Shown piece after piece: positions 21,381 to 64,000 of a stretch of 64,000 nucleotides of DNA. Within the stretch, counting starts at the first letter, position 1, and each line of letters begins with the position of its first letter. The position numbers and the translations under genes are program-made. Source of the stretch: Owenia fusiformis (lineage: Eukaryota > Annelida > Polychaeta > Sabellida > Oweniidae); assembly GCA_903813345.2 (NCBI GenBank), contig CAIIXF020000008.1, positions 35,922,867 through 35,986,866 of the forward strand. Direction: 5' to 3'. A model generated the notes under the pieces. The model was not told where the DNA came from, did not search any database, and saw only the letters and a list, made by a program, of their open reading frames with translations.

Positions 21381-23503
21381 CTTACCAGTATGTTCTAAGT
21401 CAGCCCTTGTCCTAGGTCACATTCTGAATTCAGCCAAACATGTCTCTGAAGGCAGTCTTCTCAGGAAGTAAAAATTAATCGAAAAATAATTTCTATTTAT
21501 CGTCAATATCTCCTAGAGCAGTTCGTTCGGAGCAATCGTGCCTCACTCCTCTGTTTTGATATCCATCCAGCACCTGTGTAAACCCCTGTTTAGTCTGTTT
21601 AAAAACATGCTGTTTTGTAAAAAATGCCACTGTTGGCTTCTACTGTACTTATTATGCCATAATGTGGTATCAATTTACATTTTTATTACAACATTAGCGA
21701 TATATCATATAGGTCAAAAATAGTTCCCACATCGACAAGTTAATTGTGCATTGGCCATCATTCAGAATGGTAGCAAATGCGACTTACAATAAATAGGTGC
21801 TGATATCTCAAAAAGTAACCTGACTCAATATAATTTTACGTAGATTAATTGGACCACTAGATGAAGTTGTACATTTTGACATAGCACAATGGGAGCAAGC
21901 GTTTCACAGGAATGAAAATATTCACACTATAGCCACATATGTTAAAATTTGGGATTGAAAAATATTCATTTACCGCGTGACACAATAAAAGTGACACCCA
22001 CCCATGCAATGTTTCCTAACTTTTTTGTCTGACGAAATCCTGATTTTTTTTTCGCACATTACGAGTAAAGCTACACTATATTTTGCAACTCCACAAGAAT
22101 TTTCAGATGACTAGCTCACCTGCACATTTATGAGGGTTGCAAAATATAGTGTCTATTCCTTTGCTGGCACAACTGGATCTTGTACAAAAAATTTGTAACA
22201 TAATTTTAGAAATAAGTTATAATGATTTTATCAATGACAACTACATTATTTTGAATGTAGTTCGGAGTAGGGATACTAGCGGTTACCGTTGGTTATTTGG
22301 TTTCCTGTATAAAAATACCTTCTCTCCTTTTCCGGCCCATCGCAGCGCCATCTAGTGTTTGATAAATGAATCAATGTTTATTCTCGATAGGGTAGGTACT
22401 AATCTATCAGGAAATATTGACAAGTTTGGTTAGAAACGGAATTTTTAGAGATGGCGGAGTGATTTTCGAGACTATGTAGAGCAGAATAATTTTCTGAAAC
22501 GGGTAGCTTTACCATGGTAGCTCTCTCCAGATTCAGTTATCTCAAAAACGGTGTGGTCACCGTATCATTATTTTGTAACGGCAAGCTAGACAAGACTCCA
22601 ATGAACACTAGCCACTGTTTCGCTGAGCTAGATCTGTGCCCCTGAATATATTATGACATGAAACGTTATAATGGTCCTCAATGGGATTTTTAACTGCAAT
22701 CTTGACCCTTTGTGTTTAATTTAACAGACTTCATTTTCCTGAAAGTACAAGCCAAAATCAGTTATGTTACAAAAGCTGGGTGGCATTTTTTGTGTTGATT
22801 CCATGGGTGTCCGCAAAGGAATAGACAACATTTAGAGCAAATGTAATTGTAATGCTCATAAAATTTGACTCACTTGAGCTACACATCTGAAATTTTTAGA
22901 GGTGCTTTTGTGTCACCCTGTAAATACATGTAGGAAGTGCCATTCAACATGGCTGATGGAGTAAATTAATTTGCATATATTTGTTACTTACGCTAGCTTT
23001 ATTTCCATTTGACAATATGCTGTGTTACTTTTAATAGCATTTAATTGTACCTTACTACTTCATGTACTTAGGTTAACTGAATTGTTGTAACGTTTATTTT
23101 TGGGAAGTGAAGCTTCCTAAAATTAATAATTTTGTGCTGAAAGTTTCCTGTTTTTTCCCATGTAGGAAGGACATGATGATCAATAGACTACATCAGTGGC
23201 GTCCGTCTGTGAAAGTATTGGAGCGCTGGAGTACTTCTTTGTCGATCATTGACTTGTAATTGTTCGTGAAGTGAATGTTTTCAGCCCAATTCCAATATGG
23301 TGGTTTTTGCTCGGAAACTTACATAAATCTCTGGAGGTTTTCTGAATGACCAATTGACATGTACTAGAAATGCCGACATACTTAGTTAGGACTGCAAACT
23401 ATTGGTTCATCATATATCATTTAATTACTGTATTTACATTAGATTAGAAAATTACCCTGTGATTTCTTATGAGTCTATACTTTTTTTATTATTTTGATTT
23501 CAG
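21381..23503. other. 5' flank of the SR gene
   Basis: No coding exon is seen. It holds a perfect 17-bp inverted repeat (acactatattttgcaac, 22073-22089 and 22136-22152) and, at about 22906-22924, a transposon-terminus-like string (tgtgtcaccctgta) without a visible partner. A non-coding first exon of the SR gene probably lies here or further left. Confidence 0.4.
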
Positions 23504-26500
23504 ATGTCTAACTCAAGGAAGAGTGTTGGAACAAAAGTTTACATTGGAGATATATTAGAGTCAGTTACTGCAAGAGACATTGAAGATGAGCTATCACACT
23601 TTGGACCACTGACAGAGAATCCATGGATTGCAAGAAACCCCCCTGGATTTGCTTTTGTCTACTTCAAGAGATCCAGAGATGCTGATACGGCAATCCGTAT
23701 CTTAAATGGGAACAATTTTTGTGGATCGAAAGTACGAGTTGAATTAGGTCTTGATCAACAAAGAGGAAATGCTAAACTTAATGATAGTAGAAACAGTAAT
23801 AGCAGAGGAGCCCCTCAGAGAAAAAGACCCAGGGAACGTGAGCGACACTTGCGCCCACCTTCCCCACATCAATCAAACAGCAAGAGCAAGGATTCACGCT
23901 CACGAAGCAAATTTGACAGATTTGATGACCGTTACAACAACAATGATGAAGATGATATATACGATAACAAGGATGACAACAGACGACCCTTGTCTCCTGT
24001 ATATAGAAGCAGATCCCCTTTGAGCCACAGACGCAGGTACCCCCATGGTTGATTATTCAATCATTTATTCCATTTCAGGACCCCCAACTTGCAAGCTGCA
24101 ATCATGGATTCATAACTCAGAGCTACCTTCATCTTGTAGTTCCTCACACTTTCGTCCACTTTAGCAGGCAAATTCCACCATGGCCGACTTGTAGGGCTAC
24201 TTTATTATAGGAGATCTACAAGAGTATCACCATAACCTTATCTCCAACCAACTCAGTGCCAGTGATTTGAAACCTACTGTTAAGTAGTGTTTAATCACAA
24301 AGTCCTCATAGAGAAACTCCCCTCCTGTACATTACATCAGATTTTTTTCAGGTCAGCAAGGAAATTCCCCCCCCTGCCTCCACATCACATCTCTATTAGA
24401 ATGCAGATCCCAGAAGATATATGATATGTCTAAATATTTCCCCTAACTGTATAGTGACAAGGATCAATACTAGCCTAAAGTGATACTACTAATACTAGCC
24501 AAGTAGCTACAAATATGCATTCATTTATGCCATGTATGCTATAAGAATGTAGACATCAGATAGTGTCACACTTGTCAGTGCTGAAGGTTGATTCAAGACT
24601 CATGTATAATCTCGTACCCCAGACTGCATCGGTGTTATATTCTAACCATGTATACTTACCCTGAATCCAATCAGTTAGTCACGCTACTCTCTAACTATAA
24701 CATGATTTTACACTTGATAGATCATAACAGTCACAATTGCAGCTTTAAAAGGAATTTGAATTTGAATGTATCAGTCACTTAAATGCAGAAAATGAAGTGT
24801 CAACATTTTCTGAATTTTGACTACATATTCAGAATGGATATAGCTAGATAAATGAATTATCTCTAATTTATAGATCGCCTATATAGTAACTTTACACATA
24901 CATGTATGTGGTGACAGATTCTATAACACATTTCTGCCCCATTGATTTAACAGGTCTAGGACCCCTCAAAGGAGGCATGATCTACCTGCGAAAATCCCCT
25001 CATTGATGGATCTCCCTCTAACCCCTGTTCCTGTGGTGCCCCTACTACCCGATCTTGTACCCACCAGACAACAACGTTCGAAGACTTCGGGGGCTGCACT
25101 CAGAAGAGCACACAGGAATAACACACATTCTGGAACCTCTAAAAGGCGAGATCGACTACCCCAACCAACCCATAGAGCAAAAGAGAGCAGCCAATCACCT
25201 AGGCCTAATAGAAAACGTTCTAGACACTATTCATCCCCACCTCATACTGTTCCCCCTCCACAAGGACACTCCCACGGTAGAGACCCTGACAGGCGCTCCC
25301 CTGATTCTAGACTGTATCTCCCTCAAACCAACCAATCACGCAAATCTAGTTCTAAACGACCTGCATCGCAACATAGGGGTGCCTCCCACAGGGGCAAAGC
25401 TCCTGAGGGAGATAAGTACAGCAGTAAATCTCAAAGGATGTTCAGGAGTTTGTCTCCAAGATCTCCTCCTCGGAATTCTAAACATAAGCTTCCTAATGTT
25501 CCCCCTCCATTGATGAGCCAGATTGTCGGTCCTTTAGTAGACTCAGTTGTACCCCCTCCAGCCCCACTAATGGGAAATGACTTCCTAGCTCGCTACGGCT
25601 CCCCTTTAAGGGATCATTCCCCATCATCTCCCATTTCCCAGAGCTCCAACCCTGATTACAATTCAAGGAAAACAGGTAGTGATGGGAATCATACACACTT
25701 TGTATCATGTAGGAGAACACCCCCTAAGGCACACTCAAGCAAAAGAGCCAGGTCCCCATATATTTCCCCATCTAGGGGGAGATCACCCCTGCCACGTTCA
25801 GACAAGTACTCCTCCCCTAATCGGGGGAAGCCTTCACTTAAGAGTAAAGTTGGTAGGTATGTCTCGAGATCTCCCCTGCGTCAACAATCTACAAGGCTAC
25901 CTTCTGGAAGATCACCAATAAAGAGCATTATCCATAAAAGATACAAGTCAGAGTCAAAACCCCAGCGTAGTCATATGACTGAATATTCCAGTGGGCGGGC
26001 ATCAGGTAGGGATAATTCAACAAGTCACCCTCAGAAATATAGTTCATATAATGAGACCCAATCATACCGCAGAGAAGACAGACTTACTCCACCACGTAGT
26101 GCTCTTGGGGCTGTTTACACCCCAGCTGAGCATCGCAGTCTGTCCCCCCTGGATGATAGCCAGTACATGACATACCTGCCCCCTCCACCTCTCCCACCTC
26201 CTCTACTCCCACCCCCAAGGCCAAAGAAGAGTAACTGGCGTAGAAACAAGGGGGTGAAATCTCGGATGAGCATTAAAGAGAGACGTGAAGCCAGGAAAAA
26301 AGCTGTACTTCCTCTTATGTCTGATAGAGGCTCAAGTCGAAATATTAAATCACGTTCTAGCATTAGAAATTCAGAATCCTCAAAGCAATATGCCAGTAAA
26401 TCTATTCCCCCTCCACTGCCAATGTTCTCCAATTATGACTCCGGGGAGCGCCATTCCCATTTAAAGACTAGACATTACACTCCACCGCCTCTTCCCCCTT

Positions 26501-27403
26501 TACCTTCCTCTCGCTCTAGGGATAAGCCCAGACGTGCCCTCAAGCCTAATAGTGCAAGGCAAGCGGCAGCTGCACGGATTAAACAGAAAGCCATGGGAGC
26601 ATCACGTGGTAATGCAAATCATAGAAATCAACCTAGATCGTAAGTATTCCTAACATCAAATTTATCTTTTATAACTCACAAGTAAGAAAGAAACTAAGAT
26701 TGAAAGAACTAGCCTAGTAGAGAAAGATTATTTTAATATTAAGTTTATATCTCTTAGTGTTATGTGATCTAAAACTTGAAAGCATGGTGAAAAGATATTT
26801 CTTGAGGCAGCCTCTCCAGGATGTTGAGGCTAGATATGATACATTATGATTTATATTGAGCTGCCAATTTGCTCTAGTTTATATTATACTGGGTGAGCCA
26901 AAAAAGGTAACCAAAACAAATCTTAATAACTTCGTCATCCCAGTGCTCTCCTCACATTGAAATCTCTGAGGCGCAGCACCTCCATCTATTTTGTCAAACC
27001 AAAATGCTCCTCAATGCAATTAGATGCGCCTCCTAAAATGTTACTGTAAATGGGCGATGGAAAGCCACCTTTTGCGACACCTTAGGAAGTTAGGTTATAT
27101 TTGCAAGATTCGTAATGTCATGTTTTGTGAGTAGCAACACATTTCCATTAGGTTTATTAAAGTAAACAACAAGTAAATCCTATATTGGTTTGTAAGCATT
27201 GCCACCTACAACCTATGACATCATGAAGGTCATTATGCCCAAGTTTCTTTTGTGTAGCAAAAGATGACAGGGTTGATTGGGAATGTCTATTTTATGATTT
27301 TTTCACTTGCTGTTTTGCAATCAAAAATGCAAAACACCCAGAATGTGTATTAACAATTGATATTATGATGTCTTGCAGGCGTATAAGGGAAAGAAGAAGA
27401 TAG
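23504..27403 (+). CDS. SR-type splicing factor (RRM plus long RS/Pro-rich tail)
   Basis: Coding exons 23504-24036, 24954-26639 and 27379-27403 join in phase to encode 747 aa. The first donor is cgcag|gtaccc, the second agatc|gtaagt, and the acceptors end aacag and ttgcag. Residues about 10-83 form one RRM: RNP2 is KVYIGDI, RNP1 is GFAFVYF, with the SRSF3/SRSF7/Rbp1-like signature ARNPPGFAFVYF. There is no CCHC knuckle. The rest is basic and rich in RS/SR, SP and poly-Pro (for example PPPPLPPPLLPPPRPKK at about 26180-26231), ending in SRIRERRR. It is expected to bind pre-mRNA in the nucleus and recruit splicing partners through the RS region. SRSF3 relatives are usually under 250 aa, so the tail is exceptional. 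The ATG lies directly behind an acceptor (tttcag, 23503), implying a non-coding upstream exon. Confidence 0.9.
26891..26925 (+). other. Transposon-terminus-like string in SR intron 2
   Basis: ctgggtgagccaaaaaaggt resembles Tc1/mariner-type ends seen elsewhere here (cagggtgggccaaaa). No inverted partner was found, so it is probably a truncated element. Confidence 0.3.
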
Positions 27404-40301: not shown

Positions 40302-42613
40302 TAGGGTGTCTCAAAAAAATGTACCCAAAAGTAATCTGAAATATGAATACCAAGAAATTGTTTTATTTGGAAATCAAGGTGTTTTTCTCATTCCAGGAAC
40401 TCTATGGATGTGTCCGGGTATATGCCCTTTTGGTCCCTCAGTCAAATGTATGTGAAATATGGTTTTTATTACTGTCATAGTTATATTTGATAAGTATATT
40501 TACTTTTTCACGAGTTTTGATGCATAATTAACCCCCTGCTGAGAGTCAGAATAAGTATCTTAACAACAACAAAAATAGTCCTTATCATAGAAAAAACTCC
40601 AATGGCAACATGTATGACATACAACGAAGAAATAACTTAAGACCCATGAAGAATTAAAGAGAAAATCATATTTTTGAAATATATTTAAGGATTACAATTT
40701 TTTCAAATTTTTGAATTTCCCGCCAGTTTAATTTGAAGGGGGAAAAACAAGATGGTTGCCATTTGACGTAAGAAATATCAGAAAAAAAGTTGCTTTACTT
40801 TTAGTTTTCACAATGAGCACAGTTTTCCGGTTTAGGTTTTTTGACTGATTCTGACTCTTCATCACCAGGGTCATGTATAGAGATTATAAAATTGAAACCA
40901 AAATGTATGCATGAATTTGACTGAAATATGTATAATTTCACCAACACAATTGAAGTGTCAAAACTGGATGCTCAGTAATTTTGAGTGACTATAATCCCTT
41001 GATTATCCAGATAAACACCAATTCACTTATCCAGAAATACCATTCAATGTCTATACAAAGAAAGTAACCAATGTTTTGGAAGATATGTTTCAAACTTTTT
41101 GCATAATTAATTCATTTAATATTTGCCATTGATTTTCTTTCAATTCTGACAAAGTGATATGCACTGTCTTTGATGCCAATATTCTTCATCAATTGTGATT
41201 CAAATTGATATTTTTGTAATCTCAGAAGAAGGGTAAGATATTGAAGTTTAATAATATGTGTGATTGAGTTGGTTTTTCAGACATTACAATTTTCAATATT
41301 TTCTAGGTCGATACCCAGACTCATTCCCAGACTCATCCTTTGTTCTGCAAAGCATTAAAGTTCAAGAAAAATGCTGCAGTTGACATTAGTTCAGAGAACA
41401 AAAATTGTTCAGTTTTGGCACCAAACAAATTCAGTGGTCCAGGTCCAGCGTATGTATTGTGAATATTTCAACACTTTTGATGCACCAAATCGAAAACAAT
41501 TTGCAGAACTGTTGTTAAGTTTTCCACCTGTGTGTAATTTGAACAAAGGACATAGTGGAAGAAGAAGAAGTGGCCGTTCAGTGGAACATGTAGATGCTGT
41601 GAGAGAGTCCGTTGCACAAAGTCCGAAGAAATACATTCGCCGTATCTCTGTAGAAACTAACATTCATCGTAGTTCTGTGCAACGCATCCTAAGGGCAGAC
41701 TTGCATCTCTTTCCATACAAAATTCAGTCTCAAAGCGAACTAACACCCCAGCAAAAGGCAAGGAGACTAGAATTTGCCAGATGGTTTTCTAAAAAACTAG
41801 AGACGGACTATTTGTTTCTCAGGAAACTTCACATGACCGATGAATGCCATGCTCATCTCTCAGGGAAAGTGAACTCGCATAATATACTGGGGGGGGGGGG
41901 GGCAGAGAACCCAGGCAATGTACTGATTGATGAAGGTCCTAGATCTTTGCTCAAGGTGACAATGTGGGTTGCAATTGGCTGGAACGGTATTATTGGACCA
42001 TACTTTTTCGAGGATGAAGATGGCAAAACAACCACAGTGAACTAGATCAATTACCGTCAAAATGATTCAGGAGTTCTACCTCCGAGAGTTACGTAGGCTA
42101 GCTCGGAGACCAAATGACATCAGAATGAGAACAGTGTGGTTTCAGCAAGATGGAGCCCCTCCACACGCAGCAAGTGCCACACGAGAATTCCTACAAAGAT
42201 ATTTTCCTGGACGTCTGATCTCGCTGTATGAAGACATTGAATGGCCTCTCTATTCACCAAATTTGACGCCTCCAGACTTCTTTCTCTGGGGCTATTTAAA
42301 GGATCGTACCTATGCCAATCCTAAGCCAAGAAACCTAGATCAACTGAAGGCCAACATTCGAAGAGAAATTCAGAATATTCCACTGGAAACATTCCCAAAT
42401 GTAATGAGCAATGTAACAGTAAGAATGCAGTCAGTCAGTCATTGGAAAACAAGGAGCTTACTAGGCGTCATATGCAAAATGTTCTATTTTTCTCTAATGT
42501 CTCTGTCCAATTTGATCTACATCAACCGTACGGCGGTAGTCGGTCTCAAAAACGAGAGAAATATGCAACAAAAATATAGCGATAAGCAAAACGATGTAGA
42601 CTTTCTGCATTGA
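40302..42613 (+). pseudogene. Mariner/Tc1-type transposon, broken transposase
   Basis: A terminal-repeat-like end, tagggtgtctcaaaaaaatg, lies at about 40302. The transposase starts at 41371: an N-terminal helix-turn-helix region (LVQRTKIVQFWHQTNSVVQV), a linker (GHSGRRRSGRSVEHVDAV) and a second helical part. The DDE-type core has a first Asp in MTDECHAHLSG, a second in WFQQDGAPPHAA, and a third motif WPLYSPNLTPPDFFLWGYLK. A poly(G) run (41889-41902), an in-frame TAG at 42043-42045 and a frame shift before 42062 inactivate it. No matching right terminal repeat was seen up to about 44.7 kb. It is upstream of the factor B-like gene, on the opposite strand. Confidence 0.85.
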
Positions 42614-44142: not shown

Positions 44143-46853
<2,711 letters not shown>

Positions 46854-49841: not shown

Positions 49842-52800
49842 CTACCTTTTAGTTTTGCTATCTTTGTTTTCTCTTTCTTCACGTGTTGACCTGAAATAGA
49901 AATACTTCTGATAATGGGAGAAAGTATCAAATGACTGTACTATGTACTACAGATAGTAAAAAACTCATAGCAATAATGAATGAAAAGCAAAGGTATCACT
50001 CATTTTCAAAGCTTGCAGAGATATAACTGCAGAAACCAGAAACCTTGAAAATTTAGAGCACCATCTATGTGAAAGCTGTCACATAATACAGTTTGACTGG
50101 TGTAAGTGGAACAGTACACCTTTGGTACATACAAAGGTGTTCGACTAGGGAGGTATTACAGACTTTTATATCACGTTTGTGTAATGAGTCAAGGAGGGCT
50201 AGAAAAGGTGTTCTACTTTCACAAGATTTACTATATGAGGTGTTAGCTACCTTATGCTTTCTCTGGTGCTATCTGGCATGGTGAGAGTACTAACGTTGGT
50301 ATCAGAATTCAAATTTACATCCATAGACCCCGAATCATCATCCTTTCTAGCCAACTCTGTCAAGTCATCTCTGAAATATAAAACATATTTATATAGATAT
50401 ATGTACAGTATATATGTGTCATGCTTCCAAGTATGTAATAATGATGATGGTACTATATAGAAAATATCAAAAAACCTTACACTGCCAGTCATCTCTAAAT
50501 ATAAAACATATTTATATAAAAATGGCATCAATTTTCAAAATGGATGACTTATTAAGCAAAGTGTCAAAAAACAATGTGTCATGCTTCCAACTATGTAATA
50601 ATGATGGTACTACATGCATCATAAAATAGAAAATTATACTTAACTACATATACAGTGTATTGACATTAAAATGGCCACAATTTGAAACCAGTGGCAATTT
50701 TGGAAAATGACTTTTGAGCAGAACTTGCTTTCTAATAAAGCAGATGTGTACACAATATCAACTATATTTGAATTCTTGCCCAAAGGGACAGACTTGTGTT
50801 CAATGTAATAATTAACAGATTCTTACTCGCTGGTGGAAGCATCAGGTATGGTGTTTTCCTGCTTTCCTTCTTTAGCCTCCAAGTCATGAGAGGTCAGGAA
50901 ACGTTTGGCCCAGTCAGGCATTTCCCCATTTGTTTCTTTCTTCTTCTTTGACTTTGGCAGCTTTGGAGTCTGGACTCCTAAATATGATCCTGGTGAAAGA
51001 AATTTTCATACTTTGAATTGTTTTACAAGCAATGTGTACATCTGTATTGTATCATACATGTAGGCTGGTTGCTCAAAGCCTACATTTTATTTGCTCAAAA
51101 ATTTGAAAATCAAACAGGTGAAACATGCTTTTACATTATCAGGGATCGAAACTCATACATGTAGCTGCCTGACTGCAAATGCAAATCTCTTTTTAATCTC
51201 GTCAATGGAGATAGAAAAACTGGTTGTCTATTGGGCAATGGATGGAATGCCAATATGTTAAATTGGGAAATCACTTTTCACTTTTGGCAATGGACATGGA
51301 AAAACTGGTTGTCTAATGGGCAATTGACTGAATGTGAATATGGTTATACAGTTGTTGTGAACTCTGTACCTGAATCTTCAACTTCATGTTTCTGATTATC
51401 TGTTTGGTCTTCTTGACTCTCTGCAGTTTCAACATTAATCTAAAAAAAGAATATATTTGTTACAAAGCAGTATTTGAAGTGAGATTGGCAACTAAATGGT
51501 TCAGTTACAAATAATAACCCCATCCTAAAGTCATTCTTTAAAAATTAAAACAGAAGGCTTGAAAATGATCCCTGCCATTTTTAAAGCAGCAGCCATTTTG
51601 GAAAAAAGATTTTGCCTAAAACTATTCATCAAAAATTAATCTTTCCACTAAATATGAAGAAAATCCATATACTATTCTAGTATTCAAGTTATCTTCCAGA
51701 CAGATGGACAGACAGACTGACAGACAGACGTAGGGCTTCACTATATCCCTATTTCCTCCATTGGTATATTACCTGTGGCACATGAACTGTAGGTGCAGCC
51801 TGTTCTTCTTGTTCTTCTTTGATCTCATCTACCAAACTGAAAATATAATTTAAAAAATTGACCAAAACAGAGCTTGATTTTCAGCCATTCCTCAATTAGA
51901 GCAAAACCCTTTTTTCAGTGTCTTCAACTTCTTTTGTATTTATGACTGACATCTATACGATGTATTTTCAAGTAAATCATTGTAATGTTTGTAATGAACA
52001 GACCCATACTATATAAATAACAAGTAATTGATGATTAGTGATCAACTTAGTACATGAATGTAGGAGATATGATATAGAGTACAGAGTACTTGGAGACAAT
52101 GTTGTCCATGTAGGTAAGTTAGGTAACTGTCCAACAAATGGCTTCTCAAGATATCCAGCAATAATCACCTATACAGAATGGCTTACTTAACCTCCATGAT
52201 CTATATTAGAACATATCTTACTTGACTAGTTTAGGGTTTAATCTCCTGGCTAAAGCACCTCCTCCTTTCTTGCTTTCCTTCATTTCTGCTCTCACTATTC
52301 TATTCAGCTCAAGCATCTGTAAAACAATGCATACATGTAGAGGTCATTATACCGAAAGCTCTCATTTTTTATTTTTTTTGATCTCCTGCTATGGAAGTAT
52401 GATACATGACGTACCTATTGTCAATAACGATCACACAGTGATCAAATTAGGGTTCCTAAATATTATAATGAAACAATACTTTGAACAACCCTGAAAATCT
52501 CAATTAAGTTAATGGAGCATTTTGTATTGAAGTACACAGGCAAGAAAATTGAGAGGACATCTAGCTAACCTCTTGCTCAGCTGTTGACAATAAGTACTTT
52601 TTTAGGTACAATAAAAAAACAATGATATGATAAAATGACCCATTTAAAGTAAATGCATTTACATACAGTTTTCCATTTATCTTTGTTTAAAAATATTAAT
52701 TCAAAAATAAGTATTACTTGTGCAAATGTAAAATAAAATGTAACCACTTGTTGGACTGGGGATAAACCTATACATCAAATTCCATTTTTGTAATATTGAC

Positions 52801-54068
52801 AAGACAAACTGAGATAAATATTGCACTTTAAGTAAGAGCAAATGGTTGGTTTGTTTATTACTAAAATGCCCAAAACTTAAGTCAAACAAATTAACACTAT
52901 TATTGCTGTCAAGCGACAACATTTCTCAAAAGATATCTCATATACCCATTAGCACAAGACAGCCATAGACTTTTTCAGGTGTGATGAAAAGATAATTACA
53001 ATTTCAGATATCAGTTACAAATGGAGTTATAATCATCATCTCTTCCCCTTGGATATTTTACTAATTGTGATATGAATTAGGATATTCTAAATCAACTTAC
53101 CTCTTCTTGGTTCATGACCGTCATGTCTCCTAATATTTTACGTCTCCAGTCTCCATGGTTACCTTTAATCTAGAAGGATATAAATAGTTAACGCATTTTT
53201 GTATATATAATATAGAAAAATTCTAAAGCAAAATTTACTTTTCTTCGTGAAAATGTTTTCTGAAGAATTTCTTTGGGTATGCAAATAGCTTTGTAATGTG
53301 TAAAAGGATACATTATGTACTGCAGTTGGTATCTATGGTTTTAGCAAAAGCAGTGTCTGGAGAACTGTCAAGTGAAATTGACTATGGATCAGGTGAACTG
53401 CTGTCATAGAAAGCTGAACAACTTGTCCGTTATTTAATTTTGACCCATAAATCTGAAATCCTTGCGACACACCAAAAATGTGTTGACGGTAAAAACTGTT
53501 GTTATTGAACACACTTGGGGCCACAAGAGTCCTTATTAAGAACGGTTCATTCACAGGAAGACAATGGATGGTAGGATTTTTAGTTTCACTTGAGAGGTGT
53601 TCCTATGATGTGTTCCTATGATAGAGGTGTTCCTATGGTAGAGGTTTTCCACTTGGAACAGTTTTTTCTGTTATATTATATGACTTGGTCAAATTATTTA
53701 ATAAGACACACAGTAATAGCTATGGCACTTTAAGGGGCAAAATGACCATCATATAATTTATTCAACGTGCCCAAAACCTACCTAGATCTTAGCAATATTC
53801 TGCTCTTTCACGGGCAAAATTCAAATTGAATAGATTTTCCTGGAATATGATGCCAATAGATTTATCTATGTGTGCCCTCCCACACACCAATGTTGTCCCC
53901 ACACAAGGCAACAATAGCATAGCACTTAACAAATTGTGATTAAACATTTACCGCATTTCTCTTGGACATGTTGATGTTAGTTGATTGTCTGTATAGCCCC
54001 CTATTTGGGGCACTAAGCCCCTGTGGGGCCAATGCACTCTCTGCCTTCATAGGAACCTCTGACTGAAT
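49842..54068 (-). other. Distal cytosolic tail exons (unrecognised)
   Basis: Eight small in-phase exons follow the SH3 exons. Peptides include HGDWRRKILGDMTVMNQEE, MLELNRIVRAEMKESKKGGG, LVDEIKEEQEEQAAPTVHVP and EMPDWAKRFLTSHDLEAKEG. The composition is highly charged, with no known domain, and is probably flexible or helical. The last two exons have donor-like GTAG sequences that also create stops (50247, 49842), so the 3' end is uncertain. If the GTAAAT donor at 55097 is not used, these exons would need another promoter or belong to another transcript. Confidence 0.6.
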
Positions 54069-57000
54069 CTAAAAGACATGTAAAATATGCAATATTATAA
54101 CATACCTATGATGATGTATAGTGCAAAGTGTTCACAAGACAGCGGGCCAATATAAGTTTTGAAAAGCCCGCGCCCGCTAACTTTCTGATTGGTCAAGGCG
54201 CTGACGTCATAACCAATCAATCGAAGATAAAACTGTGCGAGCAATTTTTCTAAACTCATTTCAATCATTTTCAAACCATTTGTTTGTCAATTCTATAAGA
54301 AAACAGTACTCTCTGACCAGTCTACATCATCATAGGTATGTTATAAATCGTTTATGTCACTATCGTGGCACATTATGCCCTCGGTTCTCAGAGAGCAATG
54401 TCCCTCCCAAGGTCGGGCCATATATCACTTAGACCTCGGGCATATATGCCACGATAGTGACGTAACCTCTAAATAGTTCCCAGTAATAATCTACATTATA
54501 CCACTCTAAGTCCAATTACAGTTGCATAACATGGGTCTTTAACAACGATATACAGTGGACAGTGGTATATCATCATAGTATACAACTCCTCCGTATACGC
54601 TCCAGCGTATACCACTGTAGAAGTGCATTCTGGGAACTAATGAATAAAAAAATCATGAAAATTTTCATGATTTCCTAGAATCAAGTGACGTCATAAATGG
54701 TTCGAGATCAACATCAGCATTATTGAGTTGGCTATGGGATATTTTTATGGTTTTTAATTGTTATGATTGTGTTCGAATCAACTGTAATTGAACTTAGAGT
54801 GGCATAATAAGATTATACAATGGTTCATTCTGTATATCGTGCATTTTATACTCTCGTGAGAATATAATATATTCACTCGTTCGCTACGCTCACTTGTGAA
54901 TATATCATATACTCACTCGAGTATAAAAACGATATACAGAAAGAACCATTATATAACCTCATATTGTACAGTATATACAACTAGTATTTTGTTTCATCCA
55001 GTGTAATGTTATAATTACAGTATTATACAATGTGTAATTATACATGTAACCAAACCCATTAGATTAAGTATTTTTCGCGAAGGTAATCAATATTTACATT
55101 GAGATTATCATTTAGTGGTATTTTTGGTTGCACAGGTAGACTGCTCCAAGCAGGTTTGGGTGGACTGGACTCAATGATACTATGACCTGTGGGTTCAGGG
55201 GTGACTTCCACTGCCTTCTGGCGAGACTTGTTGGCTCCACGCACTATTTCAATGACATTAGATGCTGCAAAATATTTAAATACAATTCAAGTAAGCTATC
55301 ATTGACTCTTTAAGTCCCTGCTATCATTTATGCATACATTGCTATTTTTATTTCTACTGTACGACAGATGATTTAATTTAGAGATCTAACGAAAGACCTA
55401 TTGTATAACTCTTAGTTTCATAGTCATTGGCAATCTTTTAAAATCATTATCTCCAATAATGAAGAGCAACTGTTTAATGAATACAATTTCATTTTTTACA
55501 ATTTTTACCTGGAAACCACCCTGTTTTGTCTCTAGTTGTTCCTTTCCACATCCTGCCCTGTTTTTCTATCAACTTCACTTCATCTCCAACATGAAGATCT
55601 ATTTCAGAGTCTTTAGTTTTCCTAAATGCTGATATCACCTTGATTTTCACCCCAGTTTGACGCTTTCTCTTCTTCATTTTCTTTTTTAGGATTCTCTGTT
55701 TGCGTTCATGTGCAGTCAGCCCAGTGTAATCTTCCTCCTGTACAAAATGGGAGAAAGAGGATGATGACAGTTGTTGCATCAAGTTTAGAGGCTAACCAAC
55801 ATTAACAACAAGCTAACCCACACATCCACTCTCCTTCCCAGATTCATGATGTCAATTGTCATCTGGCCAATATAACTAATTATGGGTTTCACATGTAGTT
55901 TGATCTCAAGAAGAGAACTTCAAGGTTACTGGTATAGATAAAGAAGGAATGACATGAACTTTAAGAACTTGAATGAATATACAGTAAAACCATGAAAGTG
56001 GAAAACCTTTTGAATTGGAACACCTTAACACCTTGTTTCATTAGAGGAACACATTTCCAACTCCAGTTACCCATATAATTAAATTAAACTTGTAAACTTA
56101 ACACTACATCTTCATCAATAATCCGCAAAAGGCTAATAAGCCCATTTAAAGCAGATATATAGTTTAACAGTGATATAATTTGAATAGAATACAATTTGAA
56201 CCTTAACATTTACTACTTGAGGTACGAAAGTCATTCCACTCCCACATGTTTAACTGTATCTTGATTTATTTGATAATAGTAAAACACATGTACATATACT
56301 CACAGTATCGGAAGATGGTATTTGTTGTTGAACTTTAGAATGATGTTTGTTGAGAGATGGAGAATTCAGATTAGTCAAACTCCCTGATGGATTCTAAAAT
56401 GTAACAAAGCAATTGATGCAAATACAGAAAAAATCATGTATAATAAAATTTTGGTAACAAACACAATATCAATTATTGATAAAGTTAAAGCATATAGTGC
56501 ATTACTTCTGGGACAACCCTCGTACAACTGAATTAAATCATTACACAGAGTGGAATCAAATGAGTAAAGCAAGTCTTAATAGGTCTGTCATTAGACAAAG
56601 GAGAATGATTTTTATCAAAAGTTCAGGTGAGGTATCTTGTATCGTGTTAGATATTTCAGCCTCTGGCAATATCACTCATAATGTGTACATATTTATAAAA
56701 CAGTTGAAATACAAAATATTAAAATATGATCATGTTTATAATGTAAGCTTTAATATTAATACATGCAACATGCAAAATAAAATATGGCTATAATCTTATA
56801 TATAATGAAAGTAATACAGTACCTTATACAACATGCTGATAGGGGTACATGTATGTTGAAGGGTGATAGGCATTGTTATGCATGGATCATTTAGAAAGAT
56901 AGTTGCAAGAAAAAACAAGGTATTAACATGACAAAATGTCACCACCTACAGTCAAAACAGAAATGTTTGTGAGTACTTTGAATTTAAAAAATAAGCAATC

Positions 57001-60000
57001 AAATGACCATATTGAAACAGTTTATGTAAAAATAGAAACATTTATATTTATCCCAACTTTTGTATATTTCAGATAGTAATGTATAATGTGCAGCAAAGCT
57101 GTGGCTTTTTATAATTTAGGAAGTTTCAGCCATGTTAATTTTTCCGAAAATAACATGGCAGAGAAGTATCAAAATATAAGAGGACACAGATATGATAGCT
57201 AAAGTAAAAAACAAACTAAAATATACAAAAGTTGGGATAAATAAAAATGTTTCTATTTTTACATAAACTGTTTCAGTGTGGTCATTTGATTGCTTATTTT
57301 TTAAATTTAAAGTACTCACAAACATTTAGACCCTGAGAAGGTCTTTGAAGGTGAAATCTTCTGAAAACTTGAAGATTTTTTTGAAAAAAATATTGGTCAA
57401 TTTGAAGCAAGTTGAAAAAAGACCTTTTTGACCTTGAGAAGGTCATTGGAGGTCAAGTCTATATTCAGATTTGAACTTTTGAGAACTTATAGATGATTTT
57501 GAATCCTTTTTAAATCTTTTTTGACCTTGAAAAGGTCATCGAATGTCAAATCTTAATTCTAGAGTCAGATTTGAACTTCTAAAAACTTGTAGATGATTTT
57601 GAAAAAAAATTAAGTCAGTCTAAACAGTATTTGTCAAGTTGCTGGAAGTTGTAAGAAATTGTTACATATGTCGATCGCCAACCACCAACCGCCAAGCACC
57701 ATCCGCCAATCGCCATCACAAAAAATGGAGACCATAACAATATGTCACCACTTTTTGGTGGTGACATAAAAATCAAATTAGGACACCAAGTAGTTAAAAT
57801 GAGGTTTGAGCAAATTTTGTAAGAAGGTATGTGGAAGAAACCTTGTTGAAAAGACTTTTAGGTGGTTTCTCCATATTTTCCCCATACTCTTAATCTTCAG
57901 CAATGAGACCCTTGTCTAGCACTCACACTTAAAAACTCTATCTAATCCAAAGTCTCTGTGGTTTTTGTGCTATTCCAGGGAAATTACCAGTATTTAATGA
58001 AAAAAACATGAAAACCATGTTTTCCATCGATTGTGAAATCATTTATGAAATCATGGAAAAGCAATGTAAATGTCATGGACAATTTCATTTTTTCATGCGA
58101 GTGAAATTATAATTCCATGTATGTGTTAAATATAGCACATTATTAAATACATATATATTAAGTATTAATTAAAGTTAAGTGAGTTCAATATCCCTAATGA
58201 GTTAAAAACATGCTGATATGCATTGTTAACCTATACTGTATGAGAACATGCCATGAGTTAAATATCTATGAATTAAAAAACATGCATATAAGATAAATCC
58301 AAACCTGTGACCCATTGGAAGATACTGGTTGCATAGCAACAACAGATCTACGCCTTTCGTTGACCATGGCTAGAGAAATCTTGCGGCCAGGAATGTGTGC
58401 TTCAGACTATAGATGGAGTGTGTGAATGCAAATATAGACTATAATTATAAGGTCAACTACTAGCAATGGCCTAAAAGACGACAATAGATGGCGAGAAATT
58501 CAGCTGGTTTACCTTAACGTATCAAAATTGCTCAGAAAATAAATAAATAAATTTTACTGAATATATCTAGAAGAATAAATCCAGAAAAATAAATTCTGAA
58601 TGACCAATCTGCCATTTATATGAGTCCCGTCTTTCATTGTAACATTAAAGTATTCAATAATATTGAAAATAGTCTTGAGTCAAAAATTGAAAATGAAACT
58701 TCTTCAAATTGCTCAGATAATAGGGACCAATACAAGTTCATAAAAAGAGAATACTTTTTTAAAACCTCAACTTCATTTTGGGGTAAATACTGTTTATTAT
58801 GCTTTCGTTGGAGAATGTTATTTAGTATTAAAATACCAAAAATGATTGAGTTCAATCAAAATCTTCAGGTAAACTTGTTGCATGTCTGAGGAAGATTAAG
58901 AAATAAATTGATAATTTGTAAATCTCAATCATTTTTGATGCTTTTGTTGAAGATTACTTTTAGACTATTTTCATAGATTATCAAATATTTCAAGTGATTA
59001 AGCAAAAACATTATACACAAATACTGCAATTATTGTTAGATGTAAGCAAACGCACAAACATAAACAAACAGACAAACAAACAAATAACACACAGAATATT
59101 ACATTTAGCAGCGGAATAAAAATTCAACTAAGTGCTTCTTTACAATTAAATCTATAATTTGCTCTTAAGCGAGAAAAACACTACTTATACATGTATTAAT
59201 CAAACTAAACTGGTAGTGTTACACAGACTTAGGATATAGAAGAACATATAAGAACATATAAGTGCAACAAATTAAGGAACACATCAATATTATCAATGTA
59301 ACTCTGCCTCTAGAGTGCTCAGTCGTCATTACTTCTCCCTCTGAGACCATGCTTCAATTCTATGACCCACTGTGCCAGATTTTATGCACATGCTGTCAGA
59401 TGTTTGTATGAAGATAAAGGACATACAAAAGAACGAATTGGTGAAGAGGTAGATGGATGGAGGATTGAGCAATTTTCATAAGCTTACAGCCAACAATTCT
59501 TTGTAATCTCAATTTTTGCACTTTTTGATTCATGGAACACTCTCTAGTCACTTGATTGACAGTTGATTTAGACAGATTACTGCAAATCATTTGTGATTTG
59601 CTAGTAGTCATGAACTTTAAGTAACCTGTGCTAGCAATAACCTCTGTCAACAGGCTTCCAGAGGGAGAAAAAAAATGACGACTGCCGGAAACAGGGTCTG
59701 AGCTATAGAGATCATAAATATTATTTTGATGTGACACCAGTCATGTAAAGGTCAGTTATTGAACTTTTACTTACCCTAGAAGGTGCAAATACTTCATCAA
59801 GCAGTTGCTTCGCTGACTTCACAATGGTTCTCTGAAAAGTATGCACATTAAATTCAATTGTACATGTATTGTTATTTAATTATTGGTAGCAGCAAAAGAC
59901 AAAATGCTGCTAAACACTGAACTAATTGTTAAATACCATTTTATGCTGTGAGCAATTAAGGTTTCAGACCATTGTATTAACTACTGAGTTTGCGAGTACA

Positions 60001-63000
60001 CATAATACCTTTTGCTTTAGATACATGTACCGCCAAGCCAAATCAGAGTATTTTGACATCTGGTTATTACCAGTAAAATGGTTCAGGGTATAGAGAGTAG
60101 AAATGAAATTTAATAATCACTTCCTGATTGGATGTTAAATTGTTAAATATTTGAAAATGCCCCAGAAAAATTAATTTGATCCTATCAAATAACAAATGTA
60201 TAATTTTCTCTAAAATTGGTTTATATGACATTAAACTCAATCAGAGTCAGTAAGCCCCAAATACACTGTAGGACCTCAATTTCTTGGGGACTATAATCTC
60301 TTCCGTACATTCACTACCAACCTGTTTATCAGTATCCTCATCATTTTCATCCTGAGTTGCAAGTGGATCCACCAACCCAGCATCACCGTCAGTGTCCTCT
60401 TCAGTAATCATGTGTTTGAATGCCTCAATTGTAATGGCCACAAACAAACTGAAATAGACAGTAAACTATGAAGAATTCGGGATCTATAAATTATCCTGGA
60501 GTTTTACACTGGTATTCACTCAGATGTAGTCATACTTAAGGTAGAATAGTTGTACTGTATTGTCTCCATTTTCAAATTGAAGAAATTGTTACTGTTTAAA
60601 CCTGGCAAGATAATGAACATTTCAAGCTAGTGCCTCCTTCTAAACAGTGGATTTTTACATGCAAAATCATCCACAAGATGCAATGGAAACTGGAATTCAA
60701 CTGAGGACCTCTATAATTGATACACATGCTTGTATTAATTGAATCATCTTCATTGCAACAGGGAAACTTTTCTGTTAGACACAGTGATGAAACAGACAGA
60801 CGATCTGGTAAAAGATGAGACAAAGTTCTTACCTCATAACCACCATGTCAATGATGAGGTAGCAAGTGACGAAGTAGAGAGACGCCCAGTACGACGTGGA
60901 GACAATGGCAGCATTCATGATCTCATGCCAGTTGCTAGTGGTGACCACTTGGAAGACTGCCAGGAATGAACACCTGAAATGGAAAATATGCATTTAAAAA
61001 CATTTTATTTTTGTGTAACATGAATGACAATTATTGTTTCTTGTCAACCTCATCCTCCTAGGCAGGTGTTCAGAATCTGTACCTCCTTCTTCCCCCTGCT
61101 ATAACCAATTTGGAAGCTGCCGATTTAACTGAATCACGTGATCTAAGAATGCGCAATGACTTCTGTCGCAGTGTTGCGACAGCCAATCAGATTGCGAGTT
61201 CTTAATCGGGGAAATGGTAACTGCTTATCGCAGGGGTAAAAAGAAAGAATATATTCTGGATTTGAAGCCCTGTGATCAGAGGATGTGTCAACCTTAGCTC
61301 AATTCATTTTTGTACTTTGTTAAAACAGGTTGAGAGGCTAGGATTAACATTATAACCTAACAAAAGTGGCAGCTACATGTAAGTGGTTAATTAATTCATT
61401 AGATTCAATGGCTAAAAATGAAAAAGGTTAACATCAAATCCTTCTTTTGTTTCTTTTATTTCTTTTAATTTTAAATAACATATTTATTGATGGATGAACA
61501 ATTCAAATTGGCAAAAAGTTAATACTTGATTTTTAAAGGTTTTGGGGCATAAATCTTTACATGGTATTGGATTGAGAATCTCCACATCCAAGAGCTTCTC
61601 TGTAACACAAAATGACACTGACGTAAGACATTACTGATGTCAACCATGATATGAGCGAAACACATTGTTGTTTAATTTGTAAAATGGTATTAGATTGTAA
61701 AAGGGCTTATGGGTTGATGCAACATTGATGAATCATGTTGTCATGATTAATGTATTTCATGGAAAGATTATATCAATCATTATCAATTAAGATTCTCGGA
61801 AATATTTTAGGCTGTCAGAACAGATATAATGTTTGATTAATCAACTATATTTAATTTGTTGATAACATAATGTAATGCTTCATGGAAAATCAGAAGAAAT
61901 TATACATGTAATGAAAAGCACACAAAAATGTAATTGTTGATTGAAATGACTGAAAATAACGTACTGTAAAACGGGTAATTTTGACACCGGGAAATTTTAG
62001 CGATTTTTCAATTTTAGGGGGTTTTAGCGCAGGAAATTTTAGCGAAATGAAGATTAATCTTTAAAAAATCAAATTAGCGAAATGCATTAGAAATTTTATC
62101 ATTTATGGCAGAAGAATGAATAACGGACATGACAGAACATTCACTGTGTATAGATTCTATAGACTTTGATTTTGAAAGTGATCCTTTGCTCACTTATGGT
62201 ACGGGAGAATTTAAGCAATATCATTGGTTGTTGAACCGTGTTCAATTAACACCTTTTATCTTTATATTTACTACTAATACTATTTCACTGATGGATGGCT
62301 ATTTATCCTTCAGATATTGAAAGAAACATATGATTTAAAAATATTCACCTTTTTCAAATTACAAACCGGAAGTTGAGCACTGAACGAAAAGCTCCTTAAA
62401 TAATAGTATTCATGTAGTTTCCAGGGAATTTGCAAATTTTAGCGCCCGGTTTATTTTAACCCCGGTTTATTTTAGTGAGTTGAATTTTTAGCGAAACTAT
62501 AGCGATCGCTAACAATCGCTAACAATTACCCCTCGCTAACAATACCCATTTTACAGTATGTGAAAACATATGATTTGAAAATAGATAAAGTACTCGATCA
62601 ATGAGTGAATATGTTAATCCACAGAAAAAACAGCTTTAATCTTAAACTGGCAAATTATGAATAGATGTCCTGTCCCAAAGACAGAAAGTTTTAAAATAAG
62701 GGTAATTCCTACCATTGTAGAAATAATAGAAATACATGTTTAATATACATTATTGATTTTCAGTGCTTATTTTTTTGTATTACTCTATTTTAAGCAGGTG
62801 CAAATAGCATGTAAAATGCTTGGGAATTCACTGTTTTGGTAAAAAATGTTAAACATATTGTATTCCTGGATAATCTCTTGCTATTTGATTTCATAATGTA
62901 CTTGAAATGAGAAAGATTAATCCATACTTCACTGATATGTGATATGACCCCTTTTCTAATAGGTATGCCTGACCACAATCATTCGACAATCGTAATCTTG

Positions 63001-64000
63001 TGTGGTTTCTCAAATATATTACCCTTTATATGCATTTTATTATAAAACGTACCAGATATCTGCATTCATCTTGCTTTGGGTTGCTATTAAGGAAGGCAAC
63101 CAGCCATAAAATCAGATAGTGTTTTCAAGGTAAAATATCACTTCATCATTAGAACAATGGATTTCTTTAATAAACTTGATTTGAAATACAAGACTCATGA
63201 AATAAATTCATGATGAATTTCATATTTTCATTATGTAACCAATCCATAGTCATAAAATTGATCATGTTGATATCCATAAAGCCCATATTGATGACGATGG
63301 TGCCAAATATCAATTAGTTTTAATAGGTTTTCTCATTGATAGTTCTTTTCCTGTTGATCATATAATCTATTAATGGATGGCCACTTGCAAATAAGATATA
63401 GATCACACAAGGTACAAGTAAGGGCCTTGCATGCTCTAATTGCCTGTGAAACTTTGCTACAGTGAAATCATTAGACTTATTGGTAAGATCAAATGATTTT
63501 GGTTGCTGGATTATAGTTGTTAGTAAGATTAGTTTAATTTGATTGGTTCAGGTAAGATCGGTTGATTTTGATTATTGGCAAGATCAGTTGTACCTTGATA
63601 AGATTGGTTAATTTTGGTCGTCTTTTAGGGTAGATGATCTTGGCTGTAGGTAAGATCAGTTGATTTTGCTTATTAGGAATAAGATCAGTTATTCTAGAAT
63701 ATTGGTTATTAGATCAGTTGATTTTGATTGTTGTGAAGATCAGTTGTATGTTGATTTAGGTTCTCGGTAAGATTTGTTAATTTAGATAGTTTTTAGGGTA
63801 GATGATATTGGTTGTTTCTAAGATCAGTTGATTTTGACTGATGGGATATCAGCTAATTTTGAATTTTGATTATTAGATCAATTGATTTTGGTTGTTTGGT
63901 TAATGGTTATCACCTATACCTTTTTTTATTCAACCCATACTTACGATAGAGTATCAAAGCCGAGTCCACATTGATATTCATAATGTCCCGATTCATACGT
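49842..64000 (-). CDS. Voltage-gated-like cation channel with SH3-containing tail (3' part)
   Basis: Partial: the 5' part lies beyond the right edge. In-phase minus-strand exons: 64000-63945, 60973-60833, 60448-60322, 59831-59775, 58406-58305, 56393-56304, 55737-55509, 55264-55098, 54068-53952, 53169-53101, 52316-52222, 51836-51773, 51439-51370, 50989-50827, 50370-50251, 49890-49842. The first three hold the end of an S5-P-S6 unit (GFDTLS, FLAVFQVVTTSNWHEIM, then a hydrophobic S6 ending SLFVAITIEAFKHM). The NW after the filter and the S6 pattern recall domain II of two-pore channels, but other four-domain channels remain possible. The tail is acidic/basic and low-complexity, with one SH3 domain. 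All listed exons fit by phase, but the linkage of the distal tail exons is inferred. Stops at 55059 and 50247 could give shorter forms. Confidence 0.75.
54353..54466. mobile_element. Hairpin MITE in channel-gene intron
   Basis: Arms tatgtcactatcgtggca and tgccacgatagtgacgta are inverted. Related ends occur at 34509-34620. A further hairpin (gtatac-rich, about 54545-54620) lies next to it. Confidence 0.65.
54813..54956. mobile_element. Palindromic MITE in channel-gene intron
   Basis: ttatacaatggttcattctg pairs with the inverse ending aaccattatataa. Inner words tatatcg/cgatata and attcac/gtgaat also pair. Nearly the entire 144 bp folds. Confidence 0.7.
55098..55737 (-). other. SH3 domain in the channel tail
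   Basis: Exon 55737-55509 encodes a basic linker (KKKMKKRKRQTG) and then most of an SH3 domain: KVISAFRKTKDSEIDLHVGD, EVKLIEKQGRMWKGTTRDK, TGWFP. The next exon (55264-55098) finishes it with ASNVIEIV, giving the standard SH3 ending (GWFPxxYV-like, here GWFPASNV). The ALYDY motif is replaced by SAFRK, so the usual aromatic ligand-binding residues are partly missing. The GKGxW position is kept as MWKG. SH3 domains bind proline-rich partners, and the specificity here is unknown. Confidence 0.85.
56961..57327. repeat. Long inverted repeat (about 110-bp arms) in channel intron
   Basis: 56961-57071 (aaatgtttgtgagtacttt, continuing through atcaaatgaccatattgaaa) is repeated inverted at about 57219-57327. 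The loop contains the gccatg/aacatggc hairpin of the dispersed repeat that is also near 46380. Similarity is near-perfect by eye. Confidence 0.8.
57328..57775. repeat. Dispersed repeat with tgaccttgagaaggtcatt motif
   Basis: The words ttgaccttgagaaggtcatt and gatttgaacttttgagaact recur at 45800-45940, and the segment ends in a short hairpin caccactttttggtggtg (57748-57765). A related tgtcaccacct edge is seen at 45692, 56936 and 32438. It is an interspersed repeat family of unknown class. Confidence 0.55.
60322..60973 (-). other. Channel pore and S6 exons
   Basis: Exon 60973-60833 encodes FLAVFQVVTTSNWHEIM (pore helix and filter, TTSNW), followed by the hydrophobic segment ASLYFVTCYLIIDMVVM. 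Exon 60448-60322 continues SLFVAITIEAFKHMI and the acidic stretch TEEDTDGDAGLVDPLATQ. The exon junction completes a Ser codon. The preceding exon at the window edge supplies CGLGFDTLS before the pore helix. Confidence 0.8.
61964..62556. mobile_element. TA-flanked MITE with CTGTAAAA termini
   Basis: Starts CTGTAAAACGGGTAATTTT at 61964 and ends with the near-inverse aatacccattttacag at 62556, with TA on both sides. Multiple ttttagcg words point one way in the left part, and gctaacaa words point the other way at the right. The interior frame 62129-62320 shows no transposase motif. It sits in the intron between channel exons 63945 and 60973. Confidence 0.75.
62560..63944. other. Channel-gene intron
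   Basis: AT-rich. The part from 63480 to 63900 is a loose array of gttgattttg/gtaagatcagttg words with no fixed period. No exon is recognised. Confidence 0.5.

What the first reader, a model, noticed from the sequence alone, without database searches (positions are those of the whole stretch)
49842..64000. Cation channel whose cytosolic tail carries an SH3 domain
Phase-matched exons connect a two-pore-channel-like pore/S6 to an SH3 domain within about 180 residues. I know of no TPC, CatSper or Nav/Cav alpha subunit with a built-in SH3. It would couple a channel directly to proline-rich signalling partners.
Basis: partly seen in the sequence, partly recalled or inferred. Interest (0 to 1): 0.72.

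Follow-up and report, generated by a model that had tools for sequence, protein, structure and literature searches.

The report
Cation channel with built-in SH3 tail
An animal gene seems to fuse the pore of a two-pore-type cation channel to an SH3 domain, a small docking module that calcium channels usually borrow from partner proteins, but this SH3 has lost most of the groove that grips proline-rich partners, and no RNA yet shows that the two parts are one gene.

Summary
The observation largely holds. On the minus strand, 15 exons (60973 to 49842) form one open, phase-consistent chain. Exons A-B encode the pore loop and S6 of a cation channel; of the alignments printed, the best single repeat is repeat II of mouse TPC1. 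Exons F-G encode an SH3 domain above Pfam's cut-offs, 143 residues after S6. Earlier channel exons were not found in the window. One gene is favoured, because exon C, with a near-perfect donor, ties the pore exons onward and every join is in phase. It is not proven: B can read on to its own stop in exon-like GC, D holds a good ATG, and G meets H only through a weak donor. A lipid or non-classical tether is more likely (inference). The filter (TTSNW) differs from human TPC2 filter II (VVNNW), so I call it TPC-like, not TPC1/2. No relative could be fetched, as no eukaryote collection was available; novelty rests on ten limited literature searches.

The parts
60833..60973 (-). Exon A: pore loop (TTSNW filter) and first part of S6; the exon's first base completes a codon, and it leaves in phase 2
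   Evidence: Ion_trans 1.3e-07 on the surrounding open frame; mouse TPC1 repeat II; acceptor 99.8 and donor 99.7 percentile
60322..60448 (-). Exon B: end of S6 (SLFVAITIEAFKHM) and acidic stretch; leaves in phase 0. Can also read on 24 codons to TGA (60249-60247)
59775..59831 (-). Exon C: RTIVKSAKQLLDEVFAPSR, phase 0-0, near-perfect donor
   Evidence: Donor 99.9 percentile; 0 equally good candidates in 63.9 kb plus and 48.9 kb minus strand
58305..58406 (-). Exon D: tail, phase 0-0; contains ATG at 58367 in context CTAGCCATGG (possible start of a separate gene)
   Evidence: Acceptor 78.5, donor 94.7 percentile; GC step at the acceptor; ATG candidates
56304..56393 (-). Exon E: Ser/Asn-rich linker, phase 0-0
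55509..55737 (-). Exon F: basic stretch (net +12 over 27 aa) and most of the SH3 domain; leaves in phase 1
   Evidence: SH3_2 6.4e-08 on the surrounding open frame; net charge
55098..55264 (-). Exon G (short form): last SH3 strand and Pro-containing linker, ending at the internal donor AAT|gtaaat, phase 0
   Evidence: GC 0.46 up to 55098, 0.26 after it; donor only 87.5 percentile
55059..55097 (-). Extension of G to a TAA stop (alternative C-terminus, probably intron)
   Evidence: GC 0.26
53952..54068 (-). Exon H of the tail, phase 0-0
53101..53169 (-). Exon I, phase 0-0
52222..52316 (-). Exon J, phase 0 to 2
51773..51836 (-). Exon K, phase 2 to 0
   Evidence: weakest acceptor, 59.9 percentile
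51370..51439 (-). Exon L, phase 0 to 1
50827..50989 (-). Exon M, phase 1 to 2
50251..50370 (-). Exon N, phase 2 to 2
49842..49890 (-). Exon O with the TAG stop (49844-49842)

Best explanation
One minus-strand animal gene encodes a two-pore-channel-like cation channel. Its last 6-TM repeat ends at S6 in exon B. The cytosolic tail of about 490 residues then carries an acidic stretch, a basic run, a SHANK/p47phox-like SH3 domain and an end without recognised domains. Shown here: the domains, the open chain, the phases and the splice signals. Inferred: that they lie on one transcript. Proposed mechanism (inferred): the basic run and the SH3 with its worn-down pocket act together as a tether. They bind acidic membrane lipid, a non-PxxP partner, or the acidic stretch next to S6, and so place or gate the channel. 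Phase-0 introns flank C, D, E, the F+G block, H and I, so isoforms with and without the SH3 would stay in frame.
For: Ion_trans and SH3 both above Pfam cut-offs in the joined product. Exons A-B match mouse TPC1 repeat II best among the printed single-repeat alignments (41.7 bits; Cav3 repeat II at most 32.7). All joins in phase with GT-AG. 13 of 13 internal donors other than G's at or above the 94.7th percentile. No internal stop in the 15 exons beyond the terminal stops of G (long form) and O, whereas 28 of the 30 alternative frames hold stops. Exon C, in phase with B, has no equal in 63.9 kb plus and 48.9 kb minus strand, and its donor implies a downstream exon. Between B's stop and F, the only in-phase ATG-plus-donor first exons found (ATG within 150 nt, donor score 1.2 or more) lie in exon D itself. 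GC falls at G's internal donor (0.46 to 0.26), which favours G to H. Pocket loss and net +12 before the SH3. Passages of PMC10453029 describe CASKIN1 SH3 as lacking groove aromatics, with possible lipid binding, and PRAM1 SH3 as binding PI(4)P.
Against: No transcript and no relative: scans of viral contigs and prokaryote genomes found none, as expected for an animal gene. Exon B stays open for 24 more codons with exon-like GC (0.43, then 0.25 after the stop), and its donor GTTGGT is not consensus. Exon D has an ATG in good context, and exon F an in-frame ATG before the SH3. D's acceptor (78.5 percentile) and K's (59.9) are weak. Exons B-E show no similarity to the recalled human TPC1 tail: shuffles reach the score 614 of 1000 times. 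The lipid-tether step is untested, and the AlphaFold model of exon F alone was poor (pLDDT 62.5), with 0 fold matches at E up to 0.001.
Confidence: 0.66

Rival explanations
1. Two adjacent genes on the minus strand: the channel ends in exon B (TGA at 60247) or just after C, and a separate cytosolic SH3 protein begins at the ATG in exon D (58367), or at the Met in exon F after a non-coding leader, and runs to 49842.
For: Exon B reads on 24 codons to a stop, with GC 0.43 falling to 0.25 after it; B's donor is non-consensus though 97.9 percentile. ATG at 58367 in context CTAGCCATGG, 21 codons in phase to D's donor. D's acceptor is weak, and C-D and D-E are the two longest introns, 1368 and 1911 nt.
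Against: Exon C, in phase with B and with a near-perfect donor, would be left without a partner. GC rises at D's acceptor, not at its ATG (0.30 in the 40 nt upstream, 0.51 in the first 39 nt), though a 5' leader could also be richer in GC. The D-E gap contains repeats that account for part of its length.
Confidence: 0.24
2. One transcription unit with alternative ends: a short channel without SH3 (stop after B), one ending at 55059 just after the SH3, and a long one ending at 49842. This overlaps with the best explanation; the figures are not exclusive.
For: Open extension of B, TAA at 55059 shortly after G's weak internal donor, phase-0 symmetry of C, D, E, F+G, H and I.
Against: No transcript data; AATAAA is no commoner than chance in the window (154 against 144.6 expected), so poly(A) signals do not help. 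GC of G's extension is intron-like (0.26).
Confidence: 0.3
3. The SH3 works as an ordinary proline-rich docking site, or folds back on the Pro-containing linker that follows it (PPKPAW, LPVQPKIP), as recalled for p47phox-type autoinhibition.
For: p47phox is the nearest solved SH3 in one of two searches (1.7e-08 for 7yxw); the linker after the SH3 holds PxxP-like stretches.
Against: Three of five pocket positions are lost, the usual Trp118 among them.
Confidence: 0.2
4. Chance or artefact: the SH3 or channel match is spurious, or an assembly join put two loci side by side.
For: Only the end of one 6-TM repeat is present; raw reads could not be checked.
Against: Both domains exceed Pfam cut-offs; continuous phase-consistent exons cross the whole stretch.
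Confidence: 0.03

Closest known systems
Two-pore channels (TPC1; mouse structure 6c96)
   Same: Pore and S6 of repeat II: 41.7-bit single-repeat match, shared MVVM stretch and EAF
   Different: Filter TTSNW where mouse TPC1 has VVNNW (alignment; human TPC2 the same); tail carries an SH3, and B-E show no similarity to the recalled human TPC1 tail
T-type Cav3 and NALCN channels
   Same: Repeat II pore and S6 also match (Cav3 repeat II 32.7 bits; NALCN 7cm3 47.3 bits for the whole chain, repeat score not printed)
   Different: Cav3 scores lower per repeat than TPC1; Cav3 has TQEDW, here TTSNW without an acidic residue; SH3 tail
CACNB and STAC proteins
   Same: Bring an SH3 to voltage-gated calcium channels (passages of PMC10453029)
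   Different: They are separate proteins, not part of the pore subunit
SHANK1-3 and p47phox SH3 domains
   Same: Nearest SH3 sequences in the PDB; SHANK3 also lacks most pocket aromatics: K, H, F, P, C
   Different: Not channels (recalled: scaffold and oxidase-organiser proteins)
CASKIN1 and PRAM1 SH3 (lipid-associated)
   Same: CASKIN1 lacks groove aromatics; PRAM1 binds PI(4)P (passages)
   Different: Not channels; no helically extended SH3 family of Pfam matched the joined product at E up to 10

Membership tests
Two-pore channel (TPC) | Two 6-TM repeats in one polypeptide | not testable with these tools
   Upstream exons lie outside the window or were not recognised (ten ORFs)
Two-pore channel (TPC) | Repeat II pore/S6 nearest to TPC | tested here: met
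   Mouse TPC1 repeat II 41.7 bits, Cav3 repeat II at most 32.7, among the five chains printed; whole-chain scores favour Cav3 (63.3 against 50.8 bits), where several repeats add up; NALCN repeats not printed
Animal TPC1/TPC2 | Filter II VVNNW | tested here: not met
   TTSNW here; mouse TPC1 VVNNW (alignment), human TPC2 VVNNW (passages of PMC11844439)
Cav | Acidic residue in the repeat II filter (recalled as defining) | tested here: not met
   Cav3 T-Q-E-D-W against T-T-S-N-W
SH3 domain | Pfam SH3 score above cut-off | tested here: met
   SH3_2 30.7 bits (21.8), SH3_1 25.7 bits (22.9)
Classical PxxP-binding SH3 | Five pocket residues (Src Y90, Y92, W118, P133, Y136; recalled) | tested here: not met
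   S, F, M, P, N
Helically extended SH3 (hSH3; recalled as FYB/PRAM1 type) | Match to the Pfam family | tested here: not met
   No such match at E up to 10 (HMMER's filters drop most weak matches)
SH3 domain | SH3 fold in a predicted structure | tested here: inconclusive
   Exon F alone without the last strand, single sequence: pLDDT 62.5, 0 PDB matches at E up to 0.001

The most novel reading that the evidence does not exclude
A pore-forming cation channel has taken an SH3 module into its own cytosolic tail. The module has lost PxxP binding and, with its basic run, works as a built-in lipid or membrane-contact sensor, switchable by in-frame exon skipping.
Probability: 0.25. Interest if true: 0.72.

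Novelty: new variant of a known kind. Interest (0 to 1): 0.5.

Why it matters
Voltage-gated calcium channels get SH3 control from separate proteins (CACNB, STAC; passages). A channel with the SH3 in its own chain would fix the stoichiometry at one per subunit and show that this kind of control was internalised at least once. The unusual filter, with other residues at the two filter II positions reported to govern Na+ selectivity in human TPC2, would make it a natural test of TPC ion selectivity.

Tried and rejected
Whole-genome search: no genome is held for the window. Relatives: viral contigs with the channel-SH3 part (91 pattern matches, 0 confirmed) and with the H-O tail (34, 0), prokaryote genomes (332, 0); none expected for an animal gene. 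H-O tail: 0 Pfam families at E up to 10; three PDB matches, best E 0.35, not credible. NCBIfam: two chance-level matches, best E 0.096. Similarity of the tail to TPC1: PDB search of the end of B to E gave two unrelated chains, no TPC. Against the recalled human TPC1 tail, shuffles reach the score 614 (B-E), 970 (C-D), 664 (B with its extension) and 69 (F-G, a 9-residue alignment) of 1000 times. Poly(A) signals were uninformative. The fold prediction of exon F was too poor to use. Longer forms of exon B: of the phase-0 donors in the extension the best scores -4.7 against 2.8 for B's own.

Literature: 10 searches. Searches found no paper. None of the titles listed in the others describes a TPC or other pore subunit with an SH3, but one search listed 20 of 27 papers, 20 of 51 and 15 of 28. 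Papers seen as passages only: PMC7312350, PMC11844439, PMC10453029; all others as search listings.
Full report
What is there. On the minus strand, seven exons (A-G, 60973-55059) and eight more (H-O, 54068-49842) form one open reading frame with GT-AG borders and matching phases, G being cut at an internal donor. The joined product is 552 residues from the first full codon; its N-terminal part is missing. Residues 2-61 match the end of Ion_trans (38.4 bits, cut-off 25; profile 177-237 of 241) and residues 204-255 match SH3_2 (30.7 bits, cut-off 21.8), with SH3_1 at 25.7 (22.9).

The channel. The pore and S6 match many channels: 142 distinct PDB sequences at E up to 10, of which 60 were shown. 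By whole chain the best scores are Cav3 channels (63.3 bits, several repeats added together). Alignments were printed for five chains only. Among these the best single repeat is repeat II of mouse TPC1 (41.7 bits, against at most 32.7 for Cav3 repeat II); NALCN repeats were not printed. A longer query gave 41.0 and 32.4. The filter reads TTSNW. Human TPC2 has TTANN in filter I and VVNNW in filter II, and V652 and N653 of filter II are reported as probable main determinants of Na+ selectivity (passages of PMC11844439). At the aligned positions this protein has T and S, so altered selectivity is likely (inference). Earlier repeats are not in view: ten minus-strand ORFs of 60974-64000 gave no channel match. 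I therefore call it TPC-like in its last repeat and do not file it as TPC1 or TPC2.

Is the chain real? 13 of 13 internal donors other than G's lie at or above the 94.7th percentile of 674 GT sites (those sites included), using recalled splice frequencies. Acceptors are more mixed (59.9 to 100). No exon holds an internal stop apart from the terminal ones of G (long form) and O, while 28 of 30 alternative frames do. Amino-acid composition favours coding in 13 of 15 exons; A, which is membrane-spanning, and E score negative. The in-frame reading scores best of the three in 12 of 15, not in A, F and I. For 11 exons, fewer than 10% of 8478 overlapping 72-nt intron windows reach the exon's GC; E, F, L and O are not distinctive. 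A phase-0 candidate as good as exon C occurs nowhere in 63.9 kb of plus strand and 48.9 kb of minus strand outside the gene. D- and E-quality candidates turn up about 0.1-0.8 times per 4.6 kb there, and a looser class 1.0 to 2.25 times, so D and E are individually weak; D also has an alternative acceptor at 58379. Since C, D and E are all phase 0-0, the B to F join is in frame with or without them.

One gene or two? For one: C is in phase with B, and its near-perfect donor implies a further exon. The only in-phase ATG-plus-donor first exons found for a separate SH3 gene before exon F lie inside D. GC rises at D's acceptor (0.30 to 0.51), upstream of that ATG. For two: exon B stays open for 24 codons past its donor with exon-like GC, falling from 0.43 to 0.25 just after the stop; D's ATG has a strong context; D's acceptor is weak; and exon F has a Met before the SH3 that could serve after a non-coding leader. 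I put one gene at about two in three. One unit with alternative ends is compatible with much of this.

Exon G. The stretch before the internal donor at 55098 has GC 0.46, and the 39 bases from there to the TAA at 55059 have 0.26, like the sequence after it (0.27). This favours splicing from 55098 to H in spite of the weak donor (87.5 percentile). Inverted repeats that look like small mobile elements span most of the G-H intron.

The SH3. The nearest solved sequences are SHANK3 (1.7e-07) and, with the domain alone as query, p47phox and SHANK3 (1.7e-08 and 2.2e-08; 60 of 86 matches shown). Against recalled Src, the pocket positions Y90, Y92, W118, P133, Y136 read S, F, M, P, N. Classical PxxP docking is therefore doubtful. 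A 27-residue stretch just before and into the domain carries net charge +12, and a segment after S6 is strongly acidic (-8 in 20 residues). A passage of PMC10453029 reports that CASKIN1 SH3 lacks groove aromatics and may bind lipid surfaces, and that PRAM1 SH3 binds PI(4)P. I infer a lipid or charge-based tether. This is the least certain step. A fold prediction of exon F alone, which lacks the last strand, was too poor to help.

Novelty. Ten searches of the paper library showed no pore subunit with its own SH3 among the listed titles (five found no paper and three lists were incomplete). CACNB and STAC are separate SH3 proteins of calcium channels (passages). No eukaryote sequence collection was available, so how widespread the fusion is, and whether databases already hold it, remains unknown.

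Noticed in passing
44143-46799, minus strand: Histone H3 gene split by an intron of about 2.2 kb after HRYRP (read; second exon Pfam Histone 5e-42). The core reads [14 protein letters not shown], with Ala where I recall Met/Gly and Cys/Ser in common H3 types; perhaps a replacement variant.
   Followed up: partly
41359-42610, plus strand: Transposase-like ORF pair (HTH_Tnp_Tc3_2 below its cut-off, DUF4817 above it, DDE_3 at E 0.095) split between two frames near 42042.
   Followed up: no
23498-24049, plus strand: SR-protein-like gene with an RRM (9.1e-11), followed at 24946-26640 by a 565-aa open frame in a GC-rich, strand-skewed stretch.
   Followed up: no
54095-54962: Several inverted repeats (22 to 34-nt arms) that together span most of the G-H intron, like short mobile elements.
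   Followed up: partly
56961-57603: Inverted repeat with 181-nt arms (82% complementary) and 5 nt between them, next to a tandem repeat of period 100 at 57425-57603, inside the D-E intron.
   Followed up: no
whole window: The palindrome TACATGTA occurs 19 times against 2.1 expected from dinucleotides.
   Followed up: no
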